From Lamellibrachia satsuma (lineage: Eukaryota > Annelida > Polychaeta > Sabellida > Siboglinidae), in contig BSQZ01000006.1 of NCBI GenBank assembly GCA_033239005.1, forward strand, positions 4,301,501 through 4,365,500: DNA of 64,000 nucleotides, in the 5' to 3' direction. The notes beneath the pieces are model-generated. The model saw nothing but the letters and a program-made list of their open reading frames with translations. It ran no database searches and was not told the origin of the DNA. Numbering within the stretch: position 1 is the stretch's first letter; each line of letters starts with the position of its first letter. Below, one piece after another: positions 4,032 through 63,833 of the stretch. The translations under genes were made by a program, and so were the position numbers.

Positions 4032-7000
4032 CTGAAACAGAACGCCTCACCTAGATAGACTTGAACGCCTCACCTCACCTAGATAGACTTGAACGCCTCA
4101 CCTCACCTAGATAGACTTGAACGCCTCACCTCACCTAGATAGACTTGAACGCCTCACCTCACCTAGATAGGCTTGAACGCCTCACATGTAAATAGACTTG
4201 AAACATCAATTGCTTTAAAAGGAATTAGGATTGGTAAAAATGTAATTGTTTTTTATCAATTATTTTTACATCATGTCACTTTTTAACACAAATTATTCAC
4301 TACAAATAATCACTAGGATAATAATAATACTATGCCTGCGCCGTAAATCTGGTCACTGTGGATGTTCAGAGGCGAACTACAGTACAAAATTTTTTTTTAA
4401 ATATTACATAAAGGAATATATATTAAGATTTTTAAAGCATTTAAATAATATTAATTATTATATATATTAACCTTAATTTATATAATGCCATATATCCAGA
4501 AATACAATCTGTTCAGATGCGCTGAAAATACAACATTGATTAAAAACATATTGAGAATAGATAAATAAATAAATATACAACATTAAAATACTTGCTAAAG
4601 GTGACAACAAACAGTTAAAAGTGAATTCTAAAATGTTTGCGTAATTGAGGCAAAAGTGGCTGTAACTAGCCTAAAAATTAACATAAATGTGATTTAAAGA
4701 GAAAATGTGTATTAAAAAAAAGACAATGTTGACGTGTAGCCATAGGGATGTATGCTGGTGATACTTACGTGAAGGATTGCGAAGCCGAGGGCCGTCGCAC
4801 CAACCATATCGAGGTGGTTCTCTACCCACATCTTGAAAAACCACGAGCACCCTCGAGTGTTGATCTTTCTTCGACGAAGTATTCGCAGCTAGCAACAGAA
4901 TGGTCTCATCAAATCAACTGAAACAATAGCTGAGATCTGAGGTTAATATGAGAAATTACCATGAAACAAACAGTATGCATTGTATGTAGTATGTACGTGT
5001 GTACGTATTCATACATGTACATAAATAAAGAGAAGAGACTGGAATGAAGAAACACCTGAAGATGAAGGTAGTTGGGACCAGACTGTGATGGGCAGGACAA
5101 GGTAGAGGGGAGCAGACTGTGATGGGCAGGACAAGGTAGAGGGGAGCAGACTGTGATGGGCAGGACAAGGTAGAGGGGAGCACACTGTGATGGGCAGGAC
5201 AAGGTAGAGGGGAGCAGACTGTGATGGGCAAGACAAGGTAGAGGGGAGCAGACTGTGATGGGCAAGACAAGGTAGAGGGGAGCAGACTGTGATGGGCAGG
5301 ACAAGGTAGAGGGGAGCAGACTGTGATGGGCCGGACACATACAGAGGATGAGTGAGGACAGAATGGTAAAGGTAACCAACAGTGCCCAGTGTCCGGTCAA
5401 AGTGCTTTACACTCCACCCCCTGGCAGATCTTACACTCCACCCCCTGGCAGACCTTACACTCCACCCCTGGCAGACCTTACACTCCACCACCTGGCAGAC
5501 CTTATACGCCACCCCCTGGCAGACATTACACTCCACCCCCTGGCAGACCTTACACTCCACCCCCTGGCAGACCTTACCCTCCACCCCTGGCAGACCTTAC
5601 ACTCCACCCCCTGGCAGACCTTACACTCCACCCCCTGGCAGACCTTACAATCCACCCCCTGGCAGACCTTACAATCCACCCCCTGGAAGACCTTACACTC
5701 CACCCCTGGCAGACCTTACACTCCACCCCCTGGCAGACCTTACACTCCACCCCCTGGCAGACCTTACACTCCACCCCCTGGCAGACATTACACTCCACCC
5801 CCTGGCAGACCTTACACTCCACCCCCTGGCAGACCTTACACTCTACCCCCGGCAGGCCTTACATTCCACCCCCTGGAAAACCTTACACTCCTCCTCTTGG
5901 AAGACCTTACACTCCACCCCCTGGAAGACCTTACACTCCACACCCTGGCAGACCTTACACTCCACCCCCTGACAGACTTTACACTCCACCCCTGGCAGAC
6001 CTTACACTCCACCCCCTGGCAGACCTTACACTCCACCCCCTGGCAGACCTTACACTCCACCACCTGGCAGACCTTACACTCCACCCCCTGGCAGACCTTA
6101 CCCTCCACCCCTGGCAGACCTTACACTCCACCCCCTGGCAGACCTGATTGACATGGTCGCTCCAACACCAACTCCACTTAAACCAGGCTGCAATTACTGT
6201 GTGAAGACTATTTTTTCATATGCATCCGCCACTGTCTACAGCCAATTACTCATTTATACAGCTGAGTGAACGAGATGTGAATGAAATTGCCCAAGAGAGC
6301 ATGGAAATAAAGAGGGAGTGGAAACAAAGAGAGCGTGGAAATAAAGAGGGAGTGGAAACAAAGAGAGCGTGGAAATAAAGAGGGAGTGGAAACAAAGAGA
6401 GTGTGGAAATAAAGAGGGAGTGGAAACAAAGAGAGCGCGGAAATAAAGACAGCGTGGAAACAAAGAGAGCATGGAAACAAAGAGAGCATGGAAATAAAGA
6501 GGGAGTGGAAATAAAGAGGGAGTGGAAACAAAGAGAGCGTAGAAATAAAGAGGGAGTGGAAACAAAGAGAGCGTGGAAATAAAGAGGGAGTGGAAACAAA
6601 GAGAGCGTGGAAATAAAGAGAGCGTGGAAACAAAGAGGGAGTGGAAATAAAGAGGGAGTGGAAACAAAGAGAGCGTGGAAATAAAGAGGGAGTGGAAACA
6701 AAGAGAGAGTGGAAATAAAGAGGGAGTGGAAACAAAGAGAGCGTGGAAATAAAGAGGGAGTGGAAACAAAGAGAGCATGGAAATAAAGAGGGAGTGGAAA
6801 CAAAGACAGCGTGGAAATAAAGAGGGAGTGGAAACAAGGAGAGCGTGGAAACAAAGAGGGAGTGGAAACAAAGAGAGCGTGGAAACAAAGAGAGCATGGA
6901 AACAAAGAGAGCGTGGAAACAAAGAGGGAGTGGAAACAAAGAGAGTGTGGAAATAAAGAGGGAGTGGAAACAAAGAGAGCATGGAAATAAAGAGGGAGTG

Positions 7001-22000: not shown

Positions 22001-25000
22001 CTGAACTGAGGGGGTGGGATCTCACTTCCCAGGGCATCAAGGTGATTCATTTCCCTACTGAGGGTGTTGTTGCCATGGGCATAAGCTTGAGGATAAAATT
22101 ATTGCATCAACCATTACCATCAAAACAAAACAAAATTTAAGAAAAATAATTTGCTCTAATTGTCAAAGGCCCCATAACATGCAATAGTATTCATTCATTA
22201 AAAACCCCATTGAAAGTATCAGGACTGTTGGTGAAAAAAAAATTATTTTGCTTTTACCATTTTGGTAAGCAAAAACCTGCTTTTGTCAGTTTTTTTACCG
22301 TGGTAAAAACCTGTCAACCCTGCATTTAGCAGGATTAATTTTTACGGTGCACAATAAACCAAACATAAAATGTGTTTCAGTTTTCAGACATCTATGTATG
22401 CAGCTGAAGCCATGTACTGTGACAGTTATTTTAAGGTAGCAGAGACACAGGTACGAGCTAGCACACAGCAGGTGTGCTTAATACATGCACAAACCAGTAA
22501 AAATGGCTCAAGAATGATGGCAGGAAATGTATGCCAGATGAGGCAGCAGATTTGTGTGATCTCCCAATGTGGATTCTACTAGGTCCAAATGCATTAATGA
22601 AACAACAAATAACTTGTATTAGTGGGGCTTTGTTTTGGCAGAACTACTCAACAGAGACAGAACCTGCATTGTAAAGGACAGCAAAGAATATATAACAATT
22701 CCGTTACTGCCTCCTTAAACTGAGCAATGCAGAGTCACTGTGACCAAAACAGATCAGCTGCTCACAAAGACCTTGTCACGTGGCCAGGCATTGATATTTA
22801 ACCTGTAAAATGACCTGATGTGAGAACCTGCAAGGGCATAGTACACTGCTAGTAATATTGATTTGTTTACAAAGCACCTAGAAGAGGAATAAGCATAACA
22901 TGATTATCCCAGTGTACAACATAAATATGTTTTCTTGGTAGGGTTGGAGATCAAAGTGTTGAAATTACTGGCCACTTTTTTAGCAACAAGTTTGTTAACA
23001 CTGGAAAGCCTAAACATGGCCCAGTTGAATCTATGAAACTCTCTAGAGCCAGATTTAAATATGGGCTTCGGTTTTTAAAGCAACATAAAACTCAATTGAT
23101 AAGCAACTCTCTAGCCACTAAACTACAAGAACCTGATAGGTTCTGGAACGAAATTAATCGTATGAGTAACTGCACAGTTCCCTTGCCAAATAGTATTGAT
23201 GGGGTTACTGGTGCTGACAGTATAACTGAACTATGGAAGGGTCACTTTGAGTAATTGTTTAATTGTATACATGATAATGACATCACATCTTTACATTATG
23301 TCACATATACTAATGATATATTTGGTACTGTTGATGAAACTGAATTGGTCATTGGGCAGTTAGATAAAATAAATCATGTGGCCTTGATGGTATTACCGTT
23401 ACTGGCTATGTGTATGTCTACCTTTTTTGTCCATGGTTTCCTACCTGATTCTATGCTATCAGTTGTGCTTGTACCTGTTATCAAAAAAATTAATTTTGTA
23501 AAAGCAATGATAGTGACAACTACAGACCAATTGCGTTAGCCAGTGTGATGTTGAAAATAGTGAGAAAAAAAAGTCGCATGTCATCCTTTCTGATCACTAG
23601 CGGTAACCAGTTTGGTTTCAAGAGTAAGCTTGGTACTGACATGTGTATATATGTCTTAAAAGAAAATGTTGATAATTACAAGTGTTTAAATGGGTCTATG
23701 TTCATGGGTTTCCTAGATGCTTCTAAAGCCTTTGACAAAATAAGAAACTCTACATTGTTTAAGAAATTGATTGATAACAAGTACCTAGTTATACTGTTAG
23801 AATTATGATATACTGGTACACAAATCAAACTATGTTTGTATGCTGGTCTGGTATTTTATCTAAGGGATTTCAAGTCTCTAATGGTGTCAGGCAAAGTGGC
23901 ATACTCTCACTGTAACTGTTTAATGTATATATTGACGATTTCAGTGCTGCAGTAACAAAATGTCGCACTGGCTGTTGTATTGATGACATGAATATAAACC
24001 ATCTCATGTACGCAGATGACCTGGTTGTATTTTCCACTTCTAGTGTAGGTTTGAGGGAACTGTTATCTGTTTGTGAAACTTATGGCCTAAATCATGAAAT
24101 TAAATTTACTCATAAGAAAGTGCAATACTCATAAGTAGAGGAAAGCATATGAAAAATGTATGTCACCTTGCATTTAAGTTACATGGAGAGGACATTAAAG
24201 AAGTGAAAAGTGTAAAATACCTGGGTCATATTATATGCAGTGACTCTAAGGAGGACAAAGATATGATGTGTCAGTGTCGCCAATTGTATGCCTGTGGTAA
24301 TGTACTACTTAGGAAATTCTATATGTGCACAAATGATGTCAAGATCAAGCTGTTTAGTACATTTTGCTCATCTTTGCATACAGCTCAACTGTGGTGGAAT
24401 CATTGTGTACATAGCATCCACAGATTACATGTATGCTACAATAATGTGTTTAGATGATTACTTGGACTACCCAAATACTGCAGCGCTTCAGCTATGTTGG
24501 CGGAAAAACTGACTAATGACTGTAAAGCAGTCATACGAAATCTTGTATATAAATTTATGTCACGTTTAGATAAATCTAGAAACTCACTGATAATTGCGGT
24601 ACTTGGTACTGACATCAGATGGAAATCAAGGATAAGGAGACAATGGGTAAAGTCACTTTATATACATAATGACCTTGTGTAATCATACAGTATGTATGTT
24701 CTATGTTTCACCTGTTTCTTGTTTCACCTATATATGTATCATTATATGTGTATCTGTGTCTGAATTAAAGAAGTGAATTGAATATAGGATTAAAATGTTG
24801 CTATATTACCGTGACTCCCCTGAACCAGTGTTATTTTGAACACAAGCCACACACCAGATGGTTATCTTGATAAAACATTTATGTGTAATTGATGAGAGGG
24901 GATCAGTGAGTTTGCCAGGGAGGTTGCAGCCCACAGGGCACCACTGCCCAGGCCAGCAGGGTGTTCCTGACATCAATACTAACACATGAGCCTTTAACTG

Positions 25001-28000
25001 CACTTTGTAGAGTCATCAACGCCAACTCTGTTATCCATCAGTGATCCTGGATGCAGATGAGGACCTGTTGAATTCTCTCACTGGAAACTGGAACACGTGG
25101 TCCTGGTCCTCAGCAGGGCGTCTGTCGTGTGCACATACAGCTACAGTCATGATTCTATCCAGCGTCCATAGCCATCTAACAAAGTTCCATTAATAGGACA
25201 CACAATCTATATGTAACCAAACATTTCTAAATTTATTCAATAACAAACTACACGACAAGCAACGAATACTTACGATCTTGAGCAGAAGAAGCTTGTCCTT
25301 GAGGGCACCAATGATGCCGCAGAACGCCGTGAGCAGCATGCATACCCCAACCACGATGGCAAGGATTGCGGGGCTCATCGGGGCATCGTTGATCGATTCA
25401 TAGTGCTGCGAAGCTGTCACTACCCAGATACCAAGACCCAGCAACAGCAAACCTATCACCTGGAACAGAAGACACTCATGGTCACAAGACACTAAGACAC
25501 CCATGGTCACAGGACACAGAGACACTCATGGTCACAAGACACTAAGACATCCATGGTCACAAGACACTAAGACACCCATGGTCACAGGACACAGAGACAC
25601 TCATGGTCACAGAACACTAGGGCCAACTGCAGTAATAGACCTATCACCTAACTGCACAAATATACAGCAGAACACACAAGAAAGTATCTTTAAAGCGCAG
25701 TCCATAATTCATTTAGCCCATTGCAAATCAGGTTATTGAGTTAAACTTTGTTAAACTTTGACCATTAGACCGGGCAACTTGCGAAACTTTGAATAGCCCA
25801 ATTTTATATTATACTGAGGCGCAGGAACATTTTTGTAAATTTTTTACCAGACCCGGTCAAAAATAATGTAATAGTTTGTCCGATAATTTCACCAAAACTA
25901 ATTAACAAATTTGTACAAACAAGATAGCATTTCATAGTGGATAATAAATTGGTTAAATTTTTGATGAAATGGGTCTGAAACGAAAGGTCCCTCTTCAATT
26001 TGCAAATATGGAATTGAAGAGGGACCTTTAATAGGATTACAGATCTGCAACATAGTGCCTACATATGGTACAAGATATTGTCTCCAGAAACAACACCTAA
26101 GGCATTGCATGTGAAACAGAATACCAATCTTAGAAGGTAATCACCTAGCTGTGAGCATATATCTATATATCATGAACCACGGCATTAATATAAACCTCTG
26201 ATTATCTTTGAGGTTACATGTTTGAAGATGTTTACATATACAAGGCTCTTGGGAGCTGTGCCGGTCATTACTGCAGTGTGATGATCATGTTAACAGGACT
26301 AGATGGTCAACACCACCTACTAAATCACAGGGCCCTGGTATCTTTATCACCATCTATGCAACTGGCAGACACAGCTGTCCACTTGGGCTGGTCCAGACTT
26401 TCACTCTTTATGGATGTCATTGTAATAGTTGGACGTGGTGGCGTCATGGTTGGAACATCAGACTCCGAACCGAGAGAATCTGGGTTCAAATCCTTTTGTT
26501 GCCATTTTGACGCTTTGGCAATTTCATTCACTCCACACTGCTTCAGTTCACTCAGATGTATAAATGAGTACCTTATTATTAACTAAGGTGGATATGTGAA
26601 TGAATAGTTTTCTCACAATATTTGCAACATGGCTGAATGCTTCCCAGAGAAATCGAGTTAGCGTTGGAATGAACAGGTCTGCCATGGGGTGAAGTGTAAA
26701 GCACTTTGAACCTTTATAAATAGAAAGTTTGATAATGTTTATCGTAAAATGATGTTACGTAATATAAACTATATCTTTCTCATTCTAACACACTGACCAC
26801 CCAAATATGTTATAATGAACTAAAATGTTTTAATTTAACTCAATCATTGTCTGTTTAATTGGAATGTTTCAGCAGCAAATATCATATTTACATTGCGGAC
26901 TGAATGACATGGTCAGTGCATTCATAAATGGATAATGGTTGAATTATTAAAACATGCTGGTTCATTGAAACACACCCATCAAAAGTTTTGAAACACATTT
27001 GGGACATCAATACGTTATAATAGATATGGCTTATACAATGAAATGATTTCACAACGGTATGATTTCACAACGAAATGATTTTACAATGAAATTTGTAGTT
27101 TAACAATGAATGTTTTCTTCTGCCAGAAACATATATCAAAAACAACCTTTCCTATACTGGCCATAATAGTGAATGACCTAGGAAATGGACACTGCACATT
27201 TGCAGGCTATTACACTTCTGCGGGCTATGACAATTGTGCGGGCTATGACACGTGTGCGGGCTATGACACGTGTGCGGGCTATGACACTTGTGCGGGCTAT
27301 GACACTTGTGCGGGCTATGACACGTGTGCGGTCTATGACACTTGTGTGGGCTATGACACTTGTGCGGGCTATGACACGTGTGCGGGCTATGACACTTGTG
27401 CGGTCTATGACACATGTGTGGGCTATGACACGTGTGTGGGCTATGACACTTGTGCTGGCTATGACACTTGTGCTGGCTATGACACTTGTGCTGTGCAATT
27501 TTTTTTAAAAACCAAATTGTAGGACTTGATAAAAATGCTATTGAAGGTCAGTGATAAGACTAAAATCAAAGTGTACAGTTTTTTTTATTAATACCAAATT
27601 ACAATTTTGTGCACAGCCTCACTTCTTAATACCACTGGTTTATGGGAAGAGCAGTCTCATACAATAATGGACACCATTGTCCATTCTATTCAGTGATTCA
27701 GAAATTTATTGAAAATACCAAGTACATTTTCAACCATTCCAATTACTTCTTATGCAACAAAACACCAATTCCAATTCTGGAACTGGTGTTTCAATTTTAA
27801 TTACAATGTAGTTAATCACAAGTCTTATGTCAAATTGCAGGGAAGAATTATGTTTATATGCCAGGTTGTTATGCTTATGTGCCAGGTTGTTATGTTTATG
27901 TGCCAGGTTGTTATGTTTATGTGCCAGGTTGTTATGTTTATATGCCAGGTTGTTATGCACCAGCTCACCTAATATCAAAAACCAAACTGTGTCATCTGAG

Positions 28001-46827: not shown

Positions 46828-49480
46828 TCATCTACTTATAACCCGCCCTCCTGAGATATGTGTCAACCTTGTTTTTAAACATATTCACGCTGCTAGCAGT
46901 TACACAATCTGTAGACAATTTGTTCCATTCATTTATTGTCATATGTGAGAACGAGTGCTTCCTGATGTCCAATCTACATTGATCCTTTACTAATTTTACC
47001 TCATGTCCTCTAGTTCTGCTATCCTTCTTGAGTGAGAAAAACATATTTCTATCAATATTTTCATACCCATTCAATATCTTAAAAACTTCAATCTGATCTC
47101 CTCTTAACCTCCTTGTCTCTAGAGTTGTTAAACCACATTCTTTCAGGCGTTCTTCATAACTAAGGTCTCTCAGTTCTGGAATCATTTTAGTTGCTCTCCT
47201 TTGTATGCGTTCAAGCGTATCTATATCATTCTTACGATATGGTCTCCATGCTTGTATACAGTATTCTAAATGAGGTCTAACTATTGCTTTATAAAGAGGT
47301 ATAATTAACTTTTTTCCCTTGTATGTTATGTTTCTTCTAATCAATCCAAGAATGTGATTACCCTTTGAAGCTGCAATACCACACTGCTCTGAAACTTTCA
47401 TATCAGCGCTTATTGTAACTCCTAAGTCCTTTTCTTTTACAGTAGTACCCAGAACAGTATCTCCCATTTTATAGTTTACATTCAAGTTCCCATGTCCTGT
47501 ATGTAGGCATTTACGTTTCCCAAAATTGAACAACATCTGCCATTTCTCAGACCATTTCGCTAATCTGTCTAGATCGTTTTGTAAATTTTGTTTATCACCA
47601 TCAGTATTAACCTTTCTAAACAGTTTAGTGTCATCTGCAAATTTCAGTACGTTACTTGTTATATTGTCGTCCAAGTCATTGATATAAATTAAGAATAATA
47701 TAGGTCCTAATACTGATCCTTGAGGTACCCCACTCATAACCGATTTCCAATTTGAAACTTCTCCATCTACTACAACTCGTTGTCTTCTGTCAGTCAGCCA
47801 TTGTTCTATCCAGTCAGTTATGCTATCCCCGATACCATGGGCTTTTAATTTAAGTAGTAGTCTTTGATGTGGCACTTTGTCAAAAGCTTTCTGAAAATCT
47901 AAGTAGATAATATCTACTGGCGATCCCACGTCTATCCACTTAGTGATTTCTTCCAAAAAACATAACATATTTGTTAAGCATGACCTCGCTTTAAGGAATC
48001 CATGTTGAGATAAATTTAATAATGTATGCTTAACGAGGAAGTCCACCATCTTTTTTAACCTTTCTAATAATTTACAAATCACTGACGTTAAACTCACTGG
48101 TCTGTAATTCTCTGACTTATTTCTCGAACCCTTTTTAAATAATGGTCTGATGTTTGCTTCTTTCCATTCAAACGGAACAACTCCCTCTTTTAATGACAAG
48201 TTGAATACTCTTGCAAGTGGTATACTGATTTGTTCTACTGTTTCCATTAGTAATTTTGGAGGAATCCCATCCACTCCCGTCTCCCGGTGATTTGTTATCC
48301 TTCATTGCCTTTATTTTCTTAGCTACCAATTCTGGAGTTACAACTAACGGACCTAAATAGTCAGATTTAGCCCCCTGAAATGTAGCATCAGCAACTGGTA
48401 ATGAACTAATATCTTCTTTGGTAAACACTGAACTGAAGTAACCATTTAGGTCTTCCGCCATTAAAAATCCTTGTGATATTATATTTCCAGCATTATCTTC
48501 TAGAGGTCCAACCTTGTCTTGTACGTTTTGTTTACTCCTGACATATGCATAAAAACTATTGCTGTCATTTGTTATGTTACATGCTAGTTTTTGCTCATAG
48601 CTTCTTTTAGATTGTCTGATTTCAGTTGTAGCTGCATTAAGTGCCTCTTTGTATTTTGCAAAGTCTTCTTCCTTTCTGGTACGCCTATAAACCCTCCACA
48701 TAGTTTGTTTTAGCATTATTTTTCTAATAGCCTCTTTTGACAAGTGTTTCTTTCTACACCGTTTTCCTTGTTTTTGGAAGGGAACAAATTTATCGATGAT
48801 ACTCTCAATTTCATATTTTAGAATATTCCAACATTCAATTGCGGTCTTATTCATCAGCATGTTATTCCACTCTAGCTTTGCTAAGTATTTTCTCATATCT
48901 TTGTAGTTACCTTTGTGGAAATTTCTCTTGTACGTTTTCTTATTTTTACTTTCTGATTTTACATTGATGTCAAAATGTATTTGATTATGGTCACTATTAC
49001 CCAATGGTTCAAATATTTTTACATTGTCCACTAATTCTTTTTGTGATGACAAAACTATATCTAATACATTTTCTCACCTGGTTGGTTCTAGTACGTGCTG
49101 AGTAAGAAAGCTATCATGGATTAAAAATAGAAATTGTTGGTCCTCAATCCCTGTGCTCTCTAGAGAATTCCATTGTATGTGTCCATGGTTAAAATCTCCC
49201 ATTATGATACATTCCCCTTTACTAACTTCCTTTATAGCGTTTTTTTATTTTTGTGTTGTCCTCTTCGTTTATGTTTGGACTTCGGTAAACTAATCCAATA
49301 GTTAATTTTGAATTTCCTGAAACAATTTTGCACCAAACAGCTTCATCGCAATCTGCTTCCCTTTCTAGTTTTATTTCATAAGCCTGAATAGATTCTTTAA
49401 CATATAAAATAACTCCCCGCCCCTTCTTCCTATTCGATCTTTCCTAAACATTACATATGGACTAAGTATCAGGTTTGTAC
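46828..49480 (-). mobile_element. CR1/L2-like non-LTR retrotransposon, 5'-truncated
   Basis: On the minus strand it carries the end of an apurinic-type endonuclease, with GRGVILYVK near 49410, the GLVYRSPN block near 49280, MGDFNHGHIQWN near 49200 and the catalytic SDHNQIHFDI block near 48985. A linker and a full RT follow. Damage is limited: a frameshift near 49430, one near 49240, a TGA at 49076-49074 between EPTR and ENVLDIV (possibly CGA to TGA), and a 7-bp insertion near 48275-48285 that shifts frame between NKSPG and DGIPPKLL. ORF1 is absent. The 3' end near 46828 is shared with the fragment at 63577-63833, which supports the boundary. Confidence 0.9.
46832..48274 (-). pseudogene. LINE reverse transcriptase domain, frame intact for 480 codons
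   Basis: This is the RT and C-terminal part of ORF2 of the element above. In order it shows NYRPVSLTSVICKLLE, DFQKAFDKVPHQRLL, GVPQGSVLGPILFLIYINDL, the catalytic FADDTKLF, and the C-terminal domain with LEYCIQAWRPY and LERIQRRATKMI. It is uninterrupted to its stop at 46832 but is cut off from the endonuclease by the 7-bp insertion. The motif spellings fit the CR1/L2/jockey group. Without the upstream part it is not a working element. Confidence 0.9.
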
Positions 49481-54416: not shown

Positions 54417-54470
54417 ATGAAAGTTGCCGAGCACTATGTCAGCAAAGTACACACCCCTTGCTACAAGTGA
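54417..54470 (+). promoter_or_regulatory. Upstream ORF overlapping the STOML1 start
   Basis: ATG at 54417, 17 codons, TGA ending 54470, in a different frame from the STOML1 ATG at 54436, which it overlaps. Ribosomes starting here would miss the main start, so it could lower translation if the inferred leader is right. It has no recognised peptide. Confidence 0.4.
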
Positions 54471-54619
54471 TCCAGGTGTGAATGAGATGAACTTTGAGTC
54501 GATCCATCTGTATGACTCAGTCCAAGACTACAGCAGCAACAGTAGTGTAGAGGCGAAATACTCATCCATCTTCAAATATGGCAACCCTGTTACTGTCAGT
54601 CGGACTGGAGGCACTCACG
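54436..54619 (+). CDS. STOML1: STOML1 coding exon 1
   Basis: The exon probably starts at 54386 after the tgtgtag acceptor. Translation starts at ATG 54436, since the frame upstream has no other ATG. It encodes residues 1-61, a Ser-rich cytosolic tail with YTPL. The donor is CACG|GTATGA, phase 1. Confidence 0.88.
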
Positions 54620-57039
54620 GTATGACACAACTTTCTATCTCCTCTGTTGAAAAACATCTGTTTATTAAAATACCAAGTTGTATCTATGCAAATCTATTGC
54701 ATGTTGTCAAAACTTAAACATAAATTTAGTAAAATATTATATTAAAAAAATACTAATAGTATTTAAAAGAGATATATTGTAATACATTGACGTTTTGTCA
54801 CTAATCTATTTTACATGTTACCTGTCTATTTAAAGTTGTCATTCTTGTACGTATTACTTGTAAACGTTGCTTTATTGTAATACTTCCATTTATGCTGATA
54901 CATTTGATTATAAATACCTAACTGTTCTAATAAACTTCATCATGCATCTGAACAACATCATTGTACTTGAGATTATTATGTTTTGAATGAACCATGCAGG
55001 TCGATAACTCAATGAAGTCTTTAAAATGTTGTTATGTTTAAGAACAGAGACCAGATAATTATTTTATTGGTGTAACTGTAATATGCATTAATTACAAGTG
55101 TATTAATGTATGAAGCTTACAATATACATACATACATATACTGAAATCATTGGTGCATCTGTAAAAGTATACAGTGCTCAGTGTTACTGAAGAAGTCTGG
55201 TGCCTATGTTTTAGATGTGACCCACACGTCATTGCTGAGTCGTTACTGTGAAGCCCTGGTCATATTCACTGCCTACCTCGTCTTCTTTCTCACTCTGCCT
55301 CTCTCAGGCTGGTTCAGCATCAAGGTTTCTTTTATCAGATTCTAGAAATATTTTAATGTAAACACAATTAACAACAATATTGGTACTTTTTATGGTTCTG
55401 TCTAAATCGATGGAGTTTGCTAGCTATATAGACGTTTTTCTGTTCTACAAAAACTGACATTACACATCGACAACCCTGATTATTGGATAATTTTGACTGG
55501 GATGATCCATTTGCATCAGCACATTTTACATTTGAAAATGTTGTTTGATAATAAAGCATTGTTTTCTTGCAAATGATAAAAACTGGTAATATTTTAAAGA
55601 TGTTTTGTTGGTCTGAAGTATTGAAATAATTTCAGTACTAAATAGTTTCTGTGTTTACAGAATGCTAACTAGCTGGCCTATCCTGATTTATCTTGAAATT
55701 TAACAAGATATATGTGGCCTACCATGGCTACCAGTGATAATTGGTTATATGACTAAAATATATGTTGCAGACATTGCATGGTCATGAAAGAATGGTTGTC
55801 TTCCGACTTGGAAGACTATTGCCTGCCAAAGGTCCAGGTATGTTGCAGACATTGCATGGTCATGAAAGAATGGTTGTCTTCCGACTTGGAAGACTATTGC
55901 CTGCCAAAGGTCCAGGTATGTAAAAGACATTGCATGGTCATGAAAGAATGGTTGTCTTCCGACTTGGAAGACTATTGCCTGCCAAAGGTCCAGGTATGTA
56001 AAAGACATTGCATGGTCATGAAAGAATGGTTGTCTTCCGACTTGGAAGACTATTGCCTGCCAAAGGTCCAGGTATGTAAAAGACATTGCATGGTCATGAA
56101 AGAATGGTTGTCTTCCGACTTGGAAGACTATTGCCTGCCAAAGGTCCAGGTATGTAAAAGACATTGCATGGTCATGAAAGAATGGTTGTCTTCCGACTTG
56201 GAAGACTATTGCCTGCCAAAGGTCCAGGTATGTAAAAGACATTGCATGGTCATGAAAGAATGGTTGTCTTCCGACTTGGAAGACTATTGCCTGCCAAAGG
56301 TCCAGGTATGTAAAAGACATTGCATGGTCATGAAAGAATGGTTGTCTTCTGACTTGGAAGACTATTGCCTGCCAAAGGTTCAGGTATGTAAAAGACATTG
56401 CATGGTCATGAAAGAATGGTTGTCTTCCGACTTTGAAGACTATTGCCTGCCAAAGGTCTAGGTATGTAAAAGACATTGCATGGTCATGAAAGAATGGTTG
56501 TCTTCCGACTTGGAAGACTATTGCCTGCCAAAGGTCCAGGTATGTAAAAGACATTGCATGGTCATGAAAGAATGGTTGTCTTCCGACTTTGAAGACTATT
56601 GCCTGCCAAAGGTCCAGGTATGTAGAAGCACACGTTTAGTGTTTACTTTTCTTCTGCAGTTACAAAGTCATAAGAATATTGCTCTGTTTTACACAAAGAT
56701 TTTGTTAATTCAAACAATTTCACAGCATCCTTAACTAAAGATACACCACAGGCAGTGCAAGTCATAGTTAATCTGTCGTCTCATCTTGTTCTGCAGGGAT
56801 GATTCTTGTGTTGCCACTAATTGACCGTGCTACTAAGGTTGACCTTCGCACTAAAGCCTTCAGCGTGCCTCCACAGAAAGTAGGTATTTCTAACATCCTC
56901 ATCTCTCCTGTGTTACTAACAGCACCAACAATAACCCTAATGTATTTGTGACTGTCGTTGGTAACTATGGAGAGTAGTTCTATATATATGCAAGTTTTCC
57001 ATATGTGATATCTTCACATGCGTGCACATGTGCATGCGT

Positions 57040-57091
<52 letters not shown>

Positions 57092-60000
57092 CAGAGATGA
57101 CATGCACACTTCATTCACGTTTAAGTACGTCAGCCATCTTGCGTTCCAAAATGATTTGCAGTGCTCGCTTTATTGCAAGAGATCATGTCTACTGTAATTT
57201 GTTTACGTCTACACTGTACTACATTAAAATTAAAATTTTGCCGGAATTATTTTTACTTTCTTTCATTCAGTAGAAGTAACTTATATGACCTTGTTAAATT
57301 CACAGACTGCATGAACATTCATGCATGTACATGCGCACGCATGCACACACACACAAACACATGCACATCAGAGATGACATGCATACTTCATTTACGTTTA
57401 AGTACGTCAGCCATCTTGCAGTTCCAAAATGATTTGCAGTGGTCGCATCATTGCGAGAGATCACGTATAGTATATTTTGTTTTACATCTACACTGTACTG
57501 CAAACCTCACCTTTGCCAGAATTATTTTTACTTTCTTTAAACATTCAGTAGAAGAAACTTATATGACTTTGTTAGACTCACAGACTTTTGCTGCACCTGT
57601 ACACGAGCTGTTTTGTTGGTCTTTCTAATCAGGTCTTGACAACAGATGGTGGCATCATCGAGGTTGGTGCAGACGTCTACTACAACGTGCAGGACGTGAT
57701 CCTGTCTGTGAGCAACGTCCAGGACCTCAACCATTCCACACGCATCATCTCACAGACCCTGCTGCAGAAACAACTCGGCCGATATGACTTAGATGAGCTC
57801 GAGACAAAAAAGGCGAATGTCTGCGAGCTTCTGCAGGTCCGATGTGTGAAGAAGATGTGACTGCCGTTTTGTGTAGTCATCCGATCCAGAGTAGTAGACA
57901 CATGCCCATCCTCGGGAGTGGGGTCATTTGAACCTCCCCCTTTTTGAGAGAATTTTTTAAACATTTTTGAAAAATCATCCCAGAAATCCCCAGCTGATTG
58001 TGTGTGCCTGAACCCCCTTTTTCAAAACCTTACCCTTTTCATAATTAGTATTATTAACGGTTGACTGATTTCTGTGCTAAATGTATAGCTTTGTGGACTA
58101 TGACAAGTGGACTATGACAACCTTTGTAAAGGAAGCTGTGTCCATTGAAAGGTGGCAGAGAAGGTGGCTACACTACCCACCACCAAGTCATTTCCCTTTT
58201 CCATAAGTTGTGATACATATTGTAAATTAAAAAATGGTATAATAATATACTTTTCAAAATGTGGCTCCATGACACAATGTTGTAGCATTGGTTGGTTTGT
58301 GTTGTTACTTATGAAGCCATGTTCAAGGTTCATTTTAATGTTTGTAGAATGACATCAATCAAATGTCACTGACGTGGGGAGTCAAAGTTGGAAGAATTGA
58401 ACTGTAAGTGTATTAAGTGTTTGTGTGTCTGAAAATTCAAATGACATAAGCAGAAACACATTTTTTATTAGACACCAGTCTTGTGTTCAGACACCAGTTG
58501 TGTATTCAGATACCAGTTATGTGTTCAGACACCAGTATTGTGTTCAGGCACCAATCTTATGTTTACGCACCAGTATTGTGTTCAGACACCACTCTGACAG
58601 CATTCTCAAACAAAAAGCCATCATAACTACTACTGTACAAGTGTACTTTGCAATATAAGACATAAATGACCATTCAGATAATATCCATCCCACCATATAG
58701 ATTTTAAATTATCAAGTCTTTGTTGGCTCCATCTTGCAGCTCACCCATCAAAATACTGCAGCCTCCAGACCCGACCTTCAGTCAGCATGGAAACGCAGTC
58801 CAGATGATCAGCTCGATCCTGTTTCCCTCCGGCACCAAGGAGATCCCTATCCAGACAGCCCTACAGCAGATGGGACAGTTCCTACAGGCTGGAGAAAGCA
58901 AACCCTCAGCTGGTATGACCAAGATTACAACAGTAAAATAATTTAAACAGCAACATCCTAATAAATGTTACCTATGCTCTTTGGGCCCTATGGTCCATAG
59001 GACTGCCATGCTCCTCCTCCAGTTTGCTCTATCTTTGGTCACCTGTTTCGCTTCAGTCCATATCTTCCACTCCAGTTCTTGTCTTTCTTTTTCTACGGTT
59101 TTCCACCATGTTTTATTTGTTTGAAATTCATCCCACTATTACCTTATTCTTTGTAGATTGTTTGCAACGCTATGCATGTTTTCTACGATTGCTCCAAGTT
59201 ACATAAACCGTAGCCTGTCGTCTTTGTGTATGTAGCACCTTCTGGTACGTTATATCAAACTGATAGGTGGACGGCTTACATAACTTGGAACAGTCATAGA
59301 AAAACATGCATAGAGTTGCAAGCAATTGTACGTTATCCTGCCCAGAGGATAGGCATTTCTGTTAGTAATAATGGTTAGTGTACTTGGAGATGTTATGATG
59401 CCGACTTTAAATAAATCTACCTATCTGACAAGATGATAAAACCAAACACAATATAGCTTTCATTCTAATTCATAAAAATGTACCGGTATACATTTATTTG
59501 TGTTCAGAGTCTGCTGTCCCAGAAGTGAAATCTCCTCAAGATTTGCTAAATATCATGAAGCCACTTCTAAATCACTCACTGGTAGAGCAGTTTGATTGCG
59601 TCTACTGCTTCCGCATAACAGGCAGCCCTGGTACGGAGGCAGACGTCTACTTCCTCGATCTCAAACATGGTTAGTGCCTCTTGTGTTATTTTTTATCTTA
59701 AAGCGAAACAAAAGTCATGGTTTTGGAGCAATGCACCTAAGAGTTAATAAAAACTAACCATTTGCAACTACAATAAACAATATCACACCAGTGGTTTTCT
59801 CAGAATTTGTTCTAAAAGTGGGAGATTCTGGTAAGATCTCAATTTTACTGGCAGTTGACATGTTAACCAGCATGACCAATAAGTGCCTGGCAGTTCTACG
59901 AAATCGGCGACGCTAGACTTCCGATAGGACGTATTAAATGTTTTCGACCAAAATCGAAGGGCCAGCGGGTGTACACCAAACTCTCACAATCAAATGACCT

Positions 60001-61744
60001 GTGAAGTCAGAACGGGATAAGTTTAGTAAAAAAGGCAAAAATATGTTGCATAAGTTGAGTTTAGATGCAAACAGCATGACCACATCCTATTGGCAAGTAC
60101 AGGACTAGGTGTTTACAAATAGATTTTCATTTCAACAAGGGTTTCCTAGGAAATTATATTCTTGATTGTAGTTGCAAATGGTTGTTTTAGTAACTCTTAT
60201 AGGAGTATAGGCTCAAAACTCCAACTTTTGTTTAATTTTTATATGAAACTGTACTTATTTATGTTCAAATCTATAGTGTGTGAATAGTTTAGGCACGTTT
60301 AAGAGTGTGAATGGCTTAGGAAAAGAATTAACTTGACCATTTGACTGGGTAACTTGCGAAAATATGAACAACCTTATGTTATGGTATATAGAGGCGAGCC
60401 ACTTCTGTTGAATTTCGACTTGGCCAATCAAAGATAATGTATCAGTTTGTCCGATAGTTTTATTAAAACTAAATAACACATTTGCACAAACAAACTAGCA
60501 TGTCGTAATCGATACTAGACAGGTTCAATGTTTTACAAAATTAATCTGAACCAGGCATGGTGCAATTAACTTGGAAAGTTAATTAATTAAATTACAATTA
60601 ACTCAGAAATTTCCCCCAATTAAATTCAATCAACCTCAGGTCAATTAAATTAAATTAACCTCCCAAATTGTTCAATTAAATTAAAATTAACTCTCATTCA
60701 ATTAATAATTAATTTCAATTAACTTCTATTAAATTAACTTAACTTAAAAACACAGAAGAAAAACATACAAAATCATTGAACTGGCATTATTAACATATTT
60801 AATAATGTTTTCTAAAAGCATACAAACATAAGTATACAAGGTTGTTAGTACCATAAGTACTGTACTGTACCTAGTGTTGGTTCACCAGTGTTCATATACT
60901 TTTCACATTTGTCCCATTGAATTTGTCATGTGGGATTATGTCTAGAAAAACTCCAGACTCCAGATACACTTTGTATTGCATCCCCTTGGATGGGTGATGA
61001 AACATCCCCTTGGATGGGTGATGAAAGCCACAAAAGAAAGGGGAGTCAATACTCTTACATAATACAGCTGTAGCACTTCGCCAGGCACACTCACAGTTCA
61101 GCTTATTCACTGATTGACACTGGCTGGACATTGACACTGTTCAAACTGCCTGTACCCGACTTGCTTTCTTTGATATTGGTTGGGTGAACTTGGATTATTA
61201 GCAGAGTGGCTGTGTCTGATGGGCACTATGATTATCAAAGCTAATTCTTACTCCTGACAGCAAGCCGGTGGAAGTCACCACCAGATTATATAAAAAATAT
61301 AGCCAATAAAAAATTTACTGAAAGTTAATTGTGATTTTTTCAGTTAAATTAAATTAACCTCTTCCAGTAAAGTTAATTAATTAAATTTTATTAATTTGTG
61401 ATTTTATACAAAGGCAATTAATTCAATCAACTTAATTGCCTGGTCTGAACCGAGACAAGCGGAAAAATCTAATTCAGCATGCACCTTTAAAGGTTATATC
61501 ATGAAAATCAATTTTGTTGTTTGCAGGTGAAGGGCAAGTGGGGTGTGGCAGCCCACCCCAGGGACAACCGGACGTGACCTTGACCATGTGTGTGGATGAC
61601 ATGAGGGGCATGCTCCAAGGTGACCTTAGCATGTTCGGTGCCTACATGGGAGGACGCCTCGAAGTGGACGGTGACTTGAGTGCAGCAAACAAACTCGGCA
61701 ACTTGACAGAAACTGTCCGCAATCGTCTGCAGAGTATGAAATGA
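54436..61744 (+). CDS. STOML1: Stomatin-like protein 1 (SPFH plus SCP2 domains), complete 9-coding-exon gene
   Basis: Coding exons are 54436-54619, 55215-55324, 55771-55837, 56797-56879, 57633-57836, 58348-58403, 58740-58912, 59508-59669 and 61527-61744. They total 1257 nt, for 418 residues. The N-terminal tail carries a YTPL tyrosine sorting-type motif (residues 5-8). A hydrophobic hairpin follows at ~74-95, containing the stomatin proline in LTLPLSGWF. The SPFH/PHB domain is ~99-235 (HERMVVFRLGRL, AKGPG, then VDLRTKAF), and a C-terminal SCP2 domain is ~300-416 with GAYMGGRLEVDGDLS. Stomatin plus SCP2 fusion is diagnostic for STOML1 and nematode UNC-24. The human protein is about 398 residues. 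It is a cholesterol-associated membrane scaffold of late endosomes. The function is inferred from the family. Exon 3 is the first member of an 11-copy exon array. Confidence 0.95.
55215..55324 (+). CDS. STOML1: STOML1 coding exon 2: membrane hairpin
   Basis: The acceptor is ctatgttttag. The exon completes a phase 1 codon, encodes SLLSRYCEALVIFTAYLVFF and LTLPLSGWFSIK, and ends at AAG|GTTTCT, a weak donor. The intramembrane hairpin with its kink proline matches stomatin family members. Confidence 0.9.
55771..55837 (+). CDS. STOML1: STOML1 coding exon 3: start of the SPFH domain (copy 1 of the array)
   Basis: A 67-bp exon after tatatgttgcag with donor CCAG|GTATGT. It encodes TLHGHERMVVFRLGRLLPAK then GPG, the core SPFH strand and loop equivalent to ERMIVFRLGR in STOML1 relatives. 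I choose copy 1 because only it has intron sequence rather than exon sequence upstream of its acceptor. Confidence 0.88.
55771..56617 (+). repeat. 11-copy tandem array of STOML1 exon 3 with both splice sites, 78-bp period
   Basis: Copies start at 55771, 55849, 55927, 56005, 56083, 56161, 56239, 56317, 56395, 56473 and 56551, in exact register with no indel. Each is the 67-bp exon plus an 11-bp spacer. The first spacer is gtatgttgcag and the later ones gtatgtaaaag. Every copy keeps a GTATGT donor and an AG before acattg. Copies 8, 9 and 11 have a stop in the stomatin frame: CGA to TGA in copy 8 and GGA to TGA in copies 9 and 11. Copies 1-7 and 10 are intact. The 11-bp spacers are far too short to be spliced. 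Because 78 is a multiple of three, long meaningless ORFs appear on both strands. Confidence 0.97.
56797..56879 (+). CDS. STOML1: STOML1 coding exon 4
   Basis: After acceptor cttgttctgcag. The first two bases finish the Gly of AKGPG. It then encodes MILVLPLIDRATKVDLRTKA and FSVPPQK. Donor AAA|GTAGGT. It continues the SPFH domain to the conserved PPQ. Confidence 0.92.
57012..57590 (+). repeat. ~285-bp direct tandem duplication in STOML1 intron 4
   Basis: 57017-57307 and 57309-57588 align throughout. Shared blocks include catcagagatgacatgc, tttaagtacgtcagccatct, caaaatgatttgcagtg, gaattatttttactttcttt and cttatatgac. The first copy carries a (CA)25 tract at 57040-57089; the second has only a short CA run. 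The duplication is moderately old. It ends ~45 bp before exon 5. Confidence 0.9.
57040..57089. repeat. (CA)25 microsatellite
   Basis: Uninterrupted CA dinucleotides in STOML1 intron 4. Confidence 0.97.
57633..57836 (+). CDS. STOML1: STOML1 coding exon 5
   Basis: Acceptor ggtctttctaatcag, 68 codons, phase 0 on both sides. It encodes VLTTDGGIIEVGADVYYNVQ through NHSTRIISQTLLQK to ANVCELLQ. The donor CAG|GTCCGA is non-ideal but required: read-through stops 8 codons later and the next exon continues the family alignment. Confidence 0.9.
58348..58403 (+). CDS. STOML1: STOML1 coding exon 6
   Basis: A 56-bp exon, acceptor aatgtttgtag, donor GTAAGTG. It encodes NDINQMSLTWGVKVGRIE, the W-G-V/I-K-V block that ends the SPFH domain in all stomatins. 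Confidence 0.92.
58740..58912 (+). CDS. STOML1: STOML1 coding exon 7: linker
   Basis: Acceptor catcttgcag, donor CTG|GTATGA. It encodes SPIKILQPPDPTFSQ and the variable linker to the SCP2 domain. ILQPPDP corresponds to the VLQPP segment of vertebrate STOML1. One other frame is open here but is only a shadow. Confidence 0.88.
59508..59669 (+). CDS. STOML1: STOML1 coding exon 8: SCP2 domain, first half
   Basis: Acceptor atttgtgttcag, donor CATG|GTTAGT. It encodes PQDLLNIMKPLLNHSLVEQF and VYCFRITG...VYFLDLKHG, the first helix and strands of an SCP2 sterol-carrier fold. Confidence 0.9.
60240..60543 (+). repeat. Dispersed repeat family member E, interrupted
   Basis: Shares blocks with members B and C ('gtgtgaatagttta', 'aacttgcgaaa', 'agtttgtccgatagtttta'). 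Its continuation resumes at 61451-61500 ('acctttaaaggttatat') after the inserted element at 60552-61442. It lies in STOML1 intron 8. Confidence 0.6.
60552..61442. mobile_element. Non-autonomous hAT-like transposon (891 bp) with 8-bp target duplication
   Basis: The left end begins caggcatggtgcaattaact. The right end, inverted, begins caggcaattaagttgattga. The flanks are atctgaac (60544-60551) and gtctgaac (61443-61450), an 8-bp target duplication with one mismatch. CAG ends with 8-bp duplications are characteristic of hAT elements. Both subterminal regions are packed with TTAATTAA/caattaa motifs. The middle has a 24-bp direct repeat (catccccttggatgggtgat) and no transposase. Confidence 0.75.
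61527..61744 (+). CDS. STOML1: STOML1 coding exon 9: SCP2 domain end and stop
   Basis: Acceptor ttgttgtttgcag. It encodes GEGQVGCGSPPQGQPDVTLT, then MLQGDLSMFGAYMGGRLEVD and GDLSAANKLGNL, ending at TGA 61742-61744. The G-D-L...A-x-K-L signature closes the SCP2 domain. Confidence 0.93.
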
Positions 61745-63299: not shown

Positions 63300-63460
63300 C
63301 TAACTGTCAATCTTGACAAAGACTTTGGGTCGTGAGAAAATTTTGATCGCTTCTGCCACCTCTGACAGTTTTTTCTCGAGTTCCTCTTTGCGCGTGCGGA
63401 TGCGCAGCGTGTCTGTGCGCACGGGCATCGACTGCAGCTGTTGAAGCAGCTGTTGCTCAG
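63300..63460 (-). CDS. C-terminal exon of an enkurin-domain-like protein (partial gene)
   Basis: The acceptor tgttgtttgtttcag is followed by 161 nt ending in TAG at 63302-63300. The exon enters with two bases of a split codon. It encodes EQQLLQQLQSMPVRTDTLRI, then RKEELEKKLSEVAEAIKIFS and RPKVFVKIDS. The pattern 'leucine-rich helix, P-x-x-x-D-T-L, R-K-x-E-L-E, F-S-R-P-K-V-F-V' at the extreme C-terminus looks like the calmodulin-binding enkurin domain of ENKD1/enkurin proteins, which are linked to cilia and microtubules. I am moderately sure of the family. The upstream exons lie beyond 64000 or within 63834-64000 unseen. Confidence 0.55.
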
Positions 63461-63576
63461 CTGAAACAAACAACAGGCACATTAGTTGTGTTTCACAACA
63501 TTTAACAAGATTACCATCAAAAGCAAAGCTAGTGGACATGGAAGCTGTTGGCGTGTCGAACGTCCAACAATTCTTC

Positions 63577-63833
63577 ATCTACATATAACCTGCCCTTCTG
63601 AGATATTTGTCAATTTTGTTTAACATATAATTTTGTTTAATATATTCATGCTGCCAGCATTTACACAATCTGTATATAATTTGTTCCATTCATTTATTGT
63701 CCTTTGAGAGAATGAGTACTTTCTGATATCTAAAGTACACTGTTCCTTCACTTATGTTAGTTTGTGTCCTCTAGTTCTTCTATCTTTCATAAGTGAGAAA
63801 ACTAAATTTCTATCAATATTTTCATATTTTAGT
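63577..63833 (-). mobile_element. 3' fragment of the same LINE family as 46828-49480
   Basis: Aligns with 46829-47075 across the last ~85 codons and 3' end of the LINE (plus-strand blocks: acacaatctgta, atttgttccattcatttatt, gtgtcctctagttct, ctatcaatattttcat), with indels and scattered changes. It lacks everything 5' of that point, a typical 5'-truncated insertion. It lies just upstream of the enkurin-like exon, in that gene's intron. Confidence 0.85.

What the first reader, a model, noticed from the sequence alone, without database searches (positions are those of the whole stretch)
55771..56617. A coding exon of STOML1, with its splice sites, is tandemly amplified to 11 copies in perfect 78-bp register
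Seen: eleven exact-length copies of a 67-bp exon plus an 11-bp spacer, each with an AG and a GTATGT donor. The exon encodes the HERMVVFRLGR core of the SPFH domain, and flanking exons fit copy 1 in phase. Known: exon duplications normally carry hundreds of bp of intron, and introns of 11 bp cannot be spliced. Inference: a splicing unit has turned into a minisatellite inside a conserved gene. The spliceosome faces one good acceptor and 11 competing donors, so splice choice, copy number and protein length may vary between individuals.
Basis: partly seen in the sequence, partly recalled or inferred. Interest (0 to 1): 0.92.

Follow-up and report, generated by a model that had tools for sequence, protein, structure and literature searches.

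The report
Tubeworm gene exon turned into minisatellite
In a gene closest to a deep-sea tubeworm's STOML1, one 67-base protein-coding exon together with its splice signals is present in eleven head-to-tail copies, and the cell would most likely use only the first copy and cut the rest out as intron, making the gene a natural test of how splicing chooses among eleven nearly identical start-of-intron signals.

Summary
In detail: 11 copies of a 67-bp exon plus 11-bp spacer, 78-bp period, no indels. The host gene is an otherwise intact nine-exon STOML1 (SPFH + SCP2, 418 aa). Its nearest relative is Lamellibrachia satsuma STOML1, so the window is very probably a vestimentiferan tubeworm. The L. satsuma protein record carries two copies joined by the same read-through spacer (GMLQ), so the duplication is not confined to this sequence. 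The unit holds the whole exon, a strong 5' splice site and only the last 10 nt of the upstream intron. Copies 8, 9 and 11 carry nonsense changes; spacers 2-10 contain an in-frame stop. With acceptor 1, only donor 1 (normal protein) or donor 2 (26-aa in-frame insert) leaves the gene open; donors 3-11 give a stop at codon 149. Best reading: a whole-exon form of the 'mirage' exon/intron-boundary minisatellites known in amphioxus, begun across a 5-bp TATGT match and enlarged by unequal exchange inside the spacer. Copy 1 is probably the working exon and copies 2-11 mostly intron. No RNA, read-level or population data were available; the window's own genome could not be searched.

The parts
54436..54619 (+). 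STOML1 exon 1 (coding part, ATG start)
   Evidence: joined exons give 418 aa without internal stop; donor GTATGA
55215..55324 (+). STOML1 exon 2 (membrane segment)
   Evidence: aligns with STOML1 relatives
55753..55757 (+). CTAAA, loose candidate branch point of intron 2 (A at 55756, 14 nt before the last intron base); lies outside the repeated unit
   Evidence: weak motif match only
55761..55770 (+). TATGTTGCAG, 3' end of intron 2: the only intron 2 sequence inside the repeated unit
   Evidence: left limit of exact 78-bp periodicity
55771..55837 (+). Exon 3, copy 1 (proposed working exon)
   Evidence: in phase with exons 2 and 4; encodes TLHGHERMVVFRLGRLLPAKGP
55838..55848 (+). Spacer 1, GTATGTTGCAG; reads in frame without stop (GMLQ)
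   Evidence: same residues in L. satsuma P0001
55849..55915 (+). Exon 3, copy 2 (identical to copy 1); acceptor 1 to donor 2 would give a 26-aa in-frame insert
55927..56305 (+). Exon 3 copies 3-7, identical to copy 1, separated by GTATGTAAAAG (in-frame TAA)
56317..56383 (+). Exon 3 copy 8, nonsense (position 34 C>T) and position 64 C>T
56395..56461 (+). Exon 3 copy 9, nonsense (position 40 G>T); position 65 C>T changes the donor to TAG|GTATGT
56473..56539 (+). Exon 3 copy 10, identical to copy 1
56551..56617 (+). Exon 3 copy 11, nonsense (position 40 G>T)
56618..56628 (+). GTATGTAGAAG, array-end flank, probably the ancestral 5' end of intron 3
56797..56879 (+). STOML1 exon 4, acceptor TTCTGCAG
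57633..57836 (+). STOML1 exon 5
58348..58403 (+). STOML1 exon 6
58740..58912 (+). STOML1 exon 7
59508..59669 (+). STOML1 exon 8 (SCP2 part)
61527..61744 (+). STOML1 exon 9 (SCP2 end, stop codon)

Best explanation
Exon 3 of an otherwise intact STOML1 gene, with its 5' splice site and the last 10 nt of the intron before it, forms an 11-copy, 78-bp minisatellite, and the spliceosome most likely joins exon 2 to copy 1 and copy 1's donor to exon 4, so that copies 2-11 would be removed as part of an enlarged intron 3. Origin (inferred): a first tandem duplication joined the TATGT at the donor (GTATGTAGAAG) to the TATGT at the acceptor (ATATGTTGCAG), making spacer 1 (GTATGTTGCAG) exactly. Unequal exchange between that spacer and the array-end flank would then make GTATGTAGAAG|ACATTG with the same 78-bp length; one G>A change and further exchanges would spread GTATGTAAAAG. 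Function (inferred): the branch point probably stays outside the unit, so copies 3-11 would have no usable acceptor and the first AG after the branch point would be copy 1's. Among donors, 1 restores the single-copy protein, 2 would add 26 in-frame residues, and 3-11 would give a stop at codon 149, such transcripts probably being removed by nonsense-mediated decay.
For: Shown: 11 copies without indels; intact 418-aa gene model with Band_7 and SCP2 domains; copies 1-7 and 10 identical, 8, 9 and 11 nonsense; stop at codon 149 in each donor 3-11 model, none internal for donors 1 and 2. Donor score 9.6 for 10 of 11 copies (8.2 for copy 9), 9.6 being at the 99.9th percentile of 3,864 GTs on the + strand of the window; the seven other donors of the gene score 1.6-7.0. 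Acceptors of copies 3-11 score -2.5 or -1.7 against 3.5 for copy 1. Two consecutive units hold no strict yTnAy branch-point match. The left edge of periodicity is TATGTTGCAG; the acceptor and donor 11-mers match at 8 of 11 positions, five in a row. The four distinct exon changes are all non-synonymous, two nonsense, as expected if distal copies are not read as exon. L. satsuma P0001 has two copies joined by GMLQ, and 29 of 29 other relatives aligned (chosen by hand from the 120 listed) have one. Amphioxus mirages are reported not to disturb normal splicing (passages).
Against: No RNA was seen, so donor choice is inference. The only record found with the array (L. satsuma P0001) is drawn with the two-copy exon, not copy 1 alone, although a predictor that favours long open exons would choose donor 2 anyway (inference). 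The candidate branch point is a loose match close to the acceptor; the only strict yTnAy between 55700 and 55770 (TTAAC, A at 55703) has two other AGs (55706, 55733) between it and exon 3. A 5-nt match between exon flanks also occurs at one of the six other internal exons tested, so the microhomology is not by itself unusual. Intron definition would favour donor 11 (179-nt intron).
Confidence: 0.68

Rival explanations
1. Two-copy isoform is the main product: exon 3 is now 145 nt (copy 1 + GMLQ spacer + copy 2), spliced from donor 2, adding 26 residues between the membrane segment and the SPFH domain.
For: With acceptor 1 the frame stays open only for donors 1 and 2; L. satsuma P0001 is annotated exactly so; AlphaFold2 of P0001 places copy 2 in SPFH strands (block means 94 and 92 for residues 111-130) and leaves residues 85-102 of copy 1 below 50, so the fold would survive.
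Against: The annotation may be ab initio; 29 of 29 other aligned relatives lack the insert; copy 2 differs by M>I between L. satsuma and the window while copy 1 does not; donor 1 is equally strong and nearer.
Confidence: 0.17
2. Assembly or polishing artefact: the true locus has one or few copies.
For: Tandem repeats are easily mis-sized; no raw reads could be examined.
Against: Copies differ in a patterned way (nonsense changes in 8, 9, 11; three spacer types); a second record carries the same chimeric spacer residues, which supports two copies but not the number eleven; tandem arrays cover 15.9% of the window.
Confidence: 0.07
3. The gene is dying: the array blocks splicing and STOML1 is a pseudogene here.
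For: With acceptor 1, nine of eleven donors lead to an early stop, and three exon copies are themselves nonsense.
Against: All nine exons are open and in phase over 418 aa; 2 differences from L. satsuma in 340 compared positions, one of them in repeat copy 2; array start shared with L. satsuma.
Confidence: 0.05
4. Donor competition is regulatory: the share of transcripts ending in the array sets STOML1 dose through nonsense-mediated decay, and copy number tunes it.
For: Every donor from 3 to 11 leads to the same early stop; two of four distinct exon changes are nonsense against 8 of 198 possible single changes (P about 0.009, tiny sample, equal rates assumed).
Against: No expression data; the same pattern follows from neglect; amphioxus mirages are reported not to disturb splicing.
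Confidence: 0.03

Closest known systems
Amphioxus 'mirage' minisatellites (Adh3, globin BflGb6/BflGb9, troponin C, PGBD5); PMC3087553 and PMC3902484, passages read; the founding 2002 paper is not held and is known only through them
   Same: Tandem minisatellite units spanning exon/intron boundaries, repeated AG/GT signals in many units, inner copies homogenised and edge copies divergent, host gene apparently intact.
   Different: In the two globin cases the unit spans one boundary. [quoted passage not shown] Here the unit holds one complete conserved exon with both AG and GT and an 11-bp spacer, in 11 copies, in an annelid. Copy-number variation and RNA are reported in amphioxus, not tested here.
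Variable internal tandem repeats at human exon-intron boundaries (PMC2812944, passages read)
   Same: Minisatellite expansion changes exon/intron structure; spliced-out and retained forms can coexist.
   Different: Average unit 30 bp, four copies, in primate-specific genes of segmental duplications; not described in the passages as a whole exon of a conserved gene.
Intron gain by tandem duplication (Rogers model, through passages of PMC3087553 and PMC2812944; PMC4974935 and PMC3443670 seen in a search listing only)
   Same: Duplication of a stretch containing AG|GT creates extra donor/acceptor pairs.
   Different: Here the spacers (11 bp) are too short to be introns; an existing intron would be lengthened instead.
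Fourth-exon duplications of earthworm metallothionein (PMC12783039, passages read)
   Same: Annelid; extra exon copies reported absent from the final transcript; minisatellites in the gene.
   Different: The minisatellites lie in intron 1; the passages do not describe the exon copies as a short-period array.

Membership tests
Amphioxus-type mirage minisatellite | Minisatellite unit spans a real exon/intron boundary | tested here: met
   Both boundaries of exon 3 lie in the unit; boundaries inferred from frame and homology, not RNA
Amphioxus-type mirage minisatellite | A copy at the array edge serves as the genuine boundary; gene frame intact | tested here: met
   Copy 1 joins exons 2 and 4 in phase, 418 aa
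Amphioxus-type mirage minisatellite | Inner copies homogenised, edge copies divergent | tested here: met
   Copies 2-7 and the spacers after them identical; changes in copies 8, 9, 11 (not 10) and in spacer 1 and the end flank
Amphioxus-type mirage minisatellite | Normal splicing not disturbed | not testable with these tools
   No RNA data
Amphioxus-type mirage minisatellite | Length polymorphism, also somatic | not testable with these tools
   One haplotype; the genome search did not complete
Amphioxus-type mirage minisatellite | Cephalochordate host (taxon of all cases read) | tested here: not met
   Nearest relative is an annelid tubeworm: 92% BLASTP identity over 82% of the query; 2 differences in 340 compared positions
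STOML1 gene | SPFH/Band 7 plus SCP2 domains | tested here: met
   PF01145 E 4.9e-19, PF02036 E 2.1e-13
Coding VNTR (mucin type) | Repeat read through as one open frame | tested here: not met
   TAA in spacers 2-10 and nonsense in copies 8, 9, 11
Mutually exclusive / cassette exon array | Copies separated by spliceable introns with own branch points | tested here: not met
   11-bp spacers; no strict yTnAy in the unit
Rogers-type intron gain | New intron inside a former exon | tested here: inconclusive
   Spacers of 11 bp are too short to be introns, but intron positions of relatives were not compared

The most novel reading that the evidence does not exclude
STOML1 of these tubeworms carries a length-variable splicing switch: a whole-exon minisatellite in which eleven near-identical strong donors compete for one acceptor, so that copy number sets the balance between the normal protein, a 26-residue-longer protein whose extra copy forms a spacer between membrane and SPFH domain, and transcripts destroyed by decay.
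Probability: 0.1. Interest if true: 0.82.

Novelty: new variant of a known kind. Interest (0 to 1): 0.52.

Why it matters
How the spliceosome picks among several good 5' splice sites is usually studied with one or two decoys (my general knowledge). Here nature offers eleven almost identical, very strong donors at fixed 78-nt steps behind at most two plausible acceptors, with stop codons that make the outcome readable from RNA. It extends mirage-type minisatellites, which I have read of only in amphioxus, to an annelid and to a whole exon. It may also show how gene predictors add repeats to proteins (the L. satsuma record), if RNA proves that isoform absent.

Tried and rejected
Amphioxus as the source organism was my first idea from the density of minisatellites; the protein search placed the gene next to Lamellibrachia instead. 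Coding VNTR and mutually exclusive exons were rejected for the reasons in the membership table; a new intron between copies is judged unlikely from the 11-bp spacers. Whether other arrays of the window overlap exons was only sampled: Pfam on 20 open frames (of 489 of 45 or more residues) gave a reverse transcriptase and an enkurin exon above cut-off, neither in a tandem array, and below cut-off a second reverse transcriptase piece, a HEAT_DAAF5 match on the enkurin frame, and a DUF7640 match (E 0.007) on the 18-bp array at 27201-27491, given no weight. The founding mirage paper is not held. Paper searches that could have shown a whole-exon minisatellite listed none that I recognised as such from titles and abstract starts; some searches listed only part of their hits (15 of 30, 12 of 384, 15 of 17, 15 of 54), and the library lacks most subscription journals. 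Searches were on L. satsuma and on intron gain.

Full report
The observation. Tandem Repeats Finder reports one array at 55769-56628 with period 78, 11.0 copies, 98% matches and no indels. Reading it copy by copy, all 11 copies start at 78-bp steps from 55771; each is 67 bp with an AG before it and GTATGT after it. Copies 1-7 and 10 are identical. Copy 8 has two changes (positions 34 and 64), copy 9 two (40 and 65), copy 11 one (40). Position 34 C>T and 40 G>T are nonsense in the STOML1 frame, so copies 8, 9 and 11 (3 of 11) could not serve as coding exon. Spacer 1 is GTATGTTGCAG, spacers 2-10 are GTATGTAAAAG and the flank after copy 11 is GTATGTAGAAG.

The gene. Nine exons from 54436 to 61744, with limits set by eye from frame and homology, join at GT/AG sites into 1,257 nt and 418 residues without an internal stop. 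The protein has Band_7/SPFH (residues 102-239) and SCP2 (316-406) domains, as STOML1 relatives do. The best of 151 database matches is 'Stomatin-like protein 1' of Lamellibrachia satsuma, a siboglinid tubeworm. With one repeat copy removed from that record, 340 positions can be compared and 2 differ: V/I in exon 5 and M/I in repeat copy 2; its last 13 residues, which depart from the window's reading, were left out. The window is very probably from Lamellibrachia or a close vestimentiferan; the species itself is not established.

A second record. The L. satsuma protein P0001 contains TLHGHERM...GPGMLQ followed by TLHGHERI...GPG, that is, copies 1 and 2 with the spacer read through. GMLQ is what the end of the exon and GTATGTTGCAG encode in frame. 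In the alignment of P0001 with 29 other relatives, 29 of 29 have no residue in the copy-1 columns (the 30 were chosen by hand from the 120 listed). The chimeric spacer is therefore present in a second sequence record; this argues against an error of this sequence alone. How many copies L. satsuma has is unknown, and whether its model rests on RNA is unknown; a predictor that prefers long open exons would choose donor 2 in the present window too.

Consequences of donor choice. With acceptor 1, all 11 donors keep the frame because 78 is a multiple of three. Donor 1 gives 418 residues, donor 2 gives 444, and donors 3-11 all stop at codon 149 through the TAA of spacer 2. Using any single intact copy (1-7 or 10) would give the very same mRNA; copies 8, 9 and 11 would give early stops.

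The repeated donor CAG|GTATGT scores 9.6, copy 9's 8.2; the gene's seven other donors score 1.6-7.0, and 9.6 is at the 99.9th percentile of 3,864 GTs. Acceptors: copy 1 3.5, copy 2 3.6, copies 3-9 and 11 -2.5, copy 10 -1.7; the gene's seven others 6.2-11.7. On the gene-own matrix the values are 6.6, 3.1, and -6.3 or -3.3 (others, each left out in turn, -0.8 to 11.4). So acceptor 1 is weak on one matrix and fair on the other. A loose branch-point match (CTAAA) lies about 14 nt before exon 3 and outside the unit; two consecutive units hold no strict yTnAy. The one strict match between 55700 and 55770 (TTAAC) is 67 nt upstream with two other AGs between, which does not favour it. The gene's other introns are 336-1,857 nt (from the exon limits), so exon definition probably rules and would favour the 67- or 145-nt exon; intron definition would instead favour donor 11 (179-nt intron). 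This choice is inference.

Origin (inference from sequence). Exact periodicity begins at TATGTTGCAG (55761). The last 11 nt of intron 2 (ATATGTTGCAG) and the first 11 after the array (GTATGTAGAAG) share TATGT in register. Joining them at TATGT gives spacer 1 letter for letter and fixes the period at 78. Unequal exchange between spacer 1 and the end flank after their common AG gives GTATGTAGAAG|ACATTG, again 78 bp; one G>A yields the common spacer. Changes cluster in copies 8-11, and position 40 is shared by copies 9 and 11 but not 10, as exchange among units would leave. Caution: a 5-nt match of this sort occurs at one of six other internal exons tested.

Constraint. The four distinct exon changes are all non-synonymous and two are nonsense; of 198 possible single changes 51 are silent, 139 missense and 8 nonsense. 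Two or more nonsense among four has P about 0.009 if all changes were equally likely, but one is a C in a CpG and the sample is tiny. It suggests that distal copies are not protected as exons.

Protein. AlphaFold2 on P0001 with 30 sequences (mean pLDDT 76.4, pTM 0.52) places copy 2 (residues 108-133) in SPFH strands (block means 94 and 92 for 111-130) and leaves residues 85-102 of copy 1 below 50; the model matches stomatin SPFH structures (4fvj, 4fvf, 9oh9). A two-copy protein would then keep its fold with a longer linker. The insert columns have no homologues, so low confidence there is expected, and P0001's own C-terminus looks mispredicted.

Context. 38 merged arrays cover 10,146 bases, 15.9% of the window. 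In such a genome an array catching an exon is less of a surprise than in a repeat-poor one.

What is known. Amphioxus globin, Adh3, troponin C and PGBD5 genes carry 'mirages', minisatellite-like duplications at exon/intron boundaries, with length variation, somatic instability at Adh3 and reportedly normal mRNA (PMC3087553 and PMC3902484, passages). In the two globin genes the unit spans one boundary; [quoted passage not shown] In human segmental duplications, variable tandem repeats at exon-intron boundaries can form new introns and retained forms (PMC2812944, passages). The present case works like a mirage, meets three features tested, fails one (taxon) and leaves two untestable; it differs in repeating one complete conserved exon at short period. 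Eight paper searches (named in Tried and rejected) listed no whole-exon case that I recognised; that is not proof of absence.

Verdict. Real, not chance, and probably not an artefact, though the number eleven rests on this sequence alone; a whole-exon variant of a known minisatellite kind. The likely effect is a longer intron behind copy 1; the striking part, competition among eleven strong donors, is set up by the sequence but untested.

Noticed in passing
window 1-64000: 53 TRF rows in 38 merged arrays cover 15.9% of the window: a minisatellite-rich stretch.
   Followed up: partly
window 55748-56635 (-) and 55757-56458 (+): The array leaves long open frames in other readings: 296 residues antisense and 234 residues in another sense frame, a by-product of the 78-bp period.
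   Followed up: no
window 46835-48301 (-): Reverse transcriptase (RVT_1, E 3.6e-28) in a 489-residue open frame, probably a retroelement; a weaker RVT_1 piece below cut-off at 23494-23805 (+).
   Followed up: no
window 63303-63578 (-): Enkurin-domain exon on the opposite strand, downstream of STOML1.
   Followed up: no
window 5407-6145: 24-bp x 31 array, open over 274 residues in one frame (5327-6148), no Pfam match; could be a coding repeat or chance.
   Followed up: partly
window 57067-57586: STOML1 intron 4 holds a 278-bp near-duplication with CA repeats, and intron 6 a 19-bp array at 58470-58595.
   Followed up: no
protein P0057 (Paralvinella palmiformis): Predicted STOML1 relative passes from the membrane segment straight to the sequence of exon 5, lacking exons 3 and 4 (read by eye); prediction gap or real is unknown.
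   Followed up: no
protein P0001 (L. satsuma): The last 13 residues depart from the window's reading after GSPP, probably a mispredicted splice.
   Followed up: no
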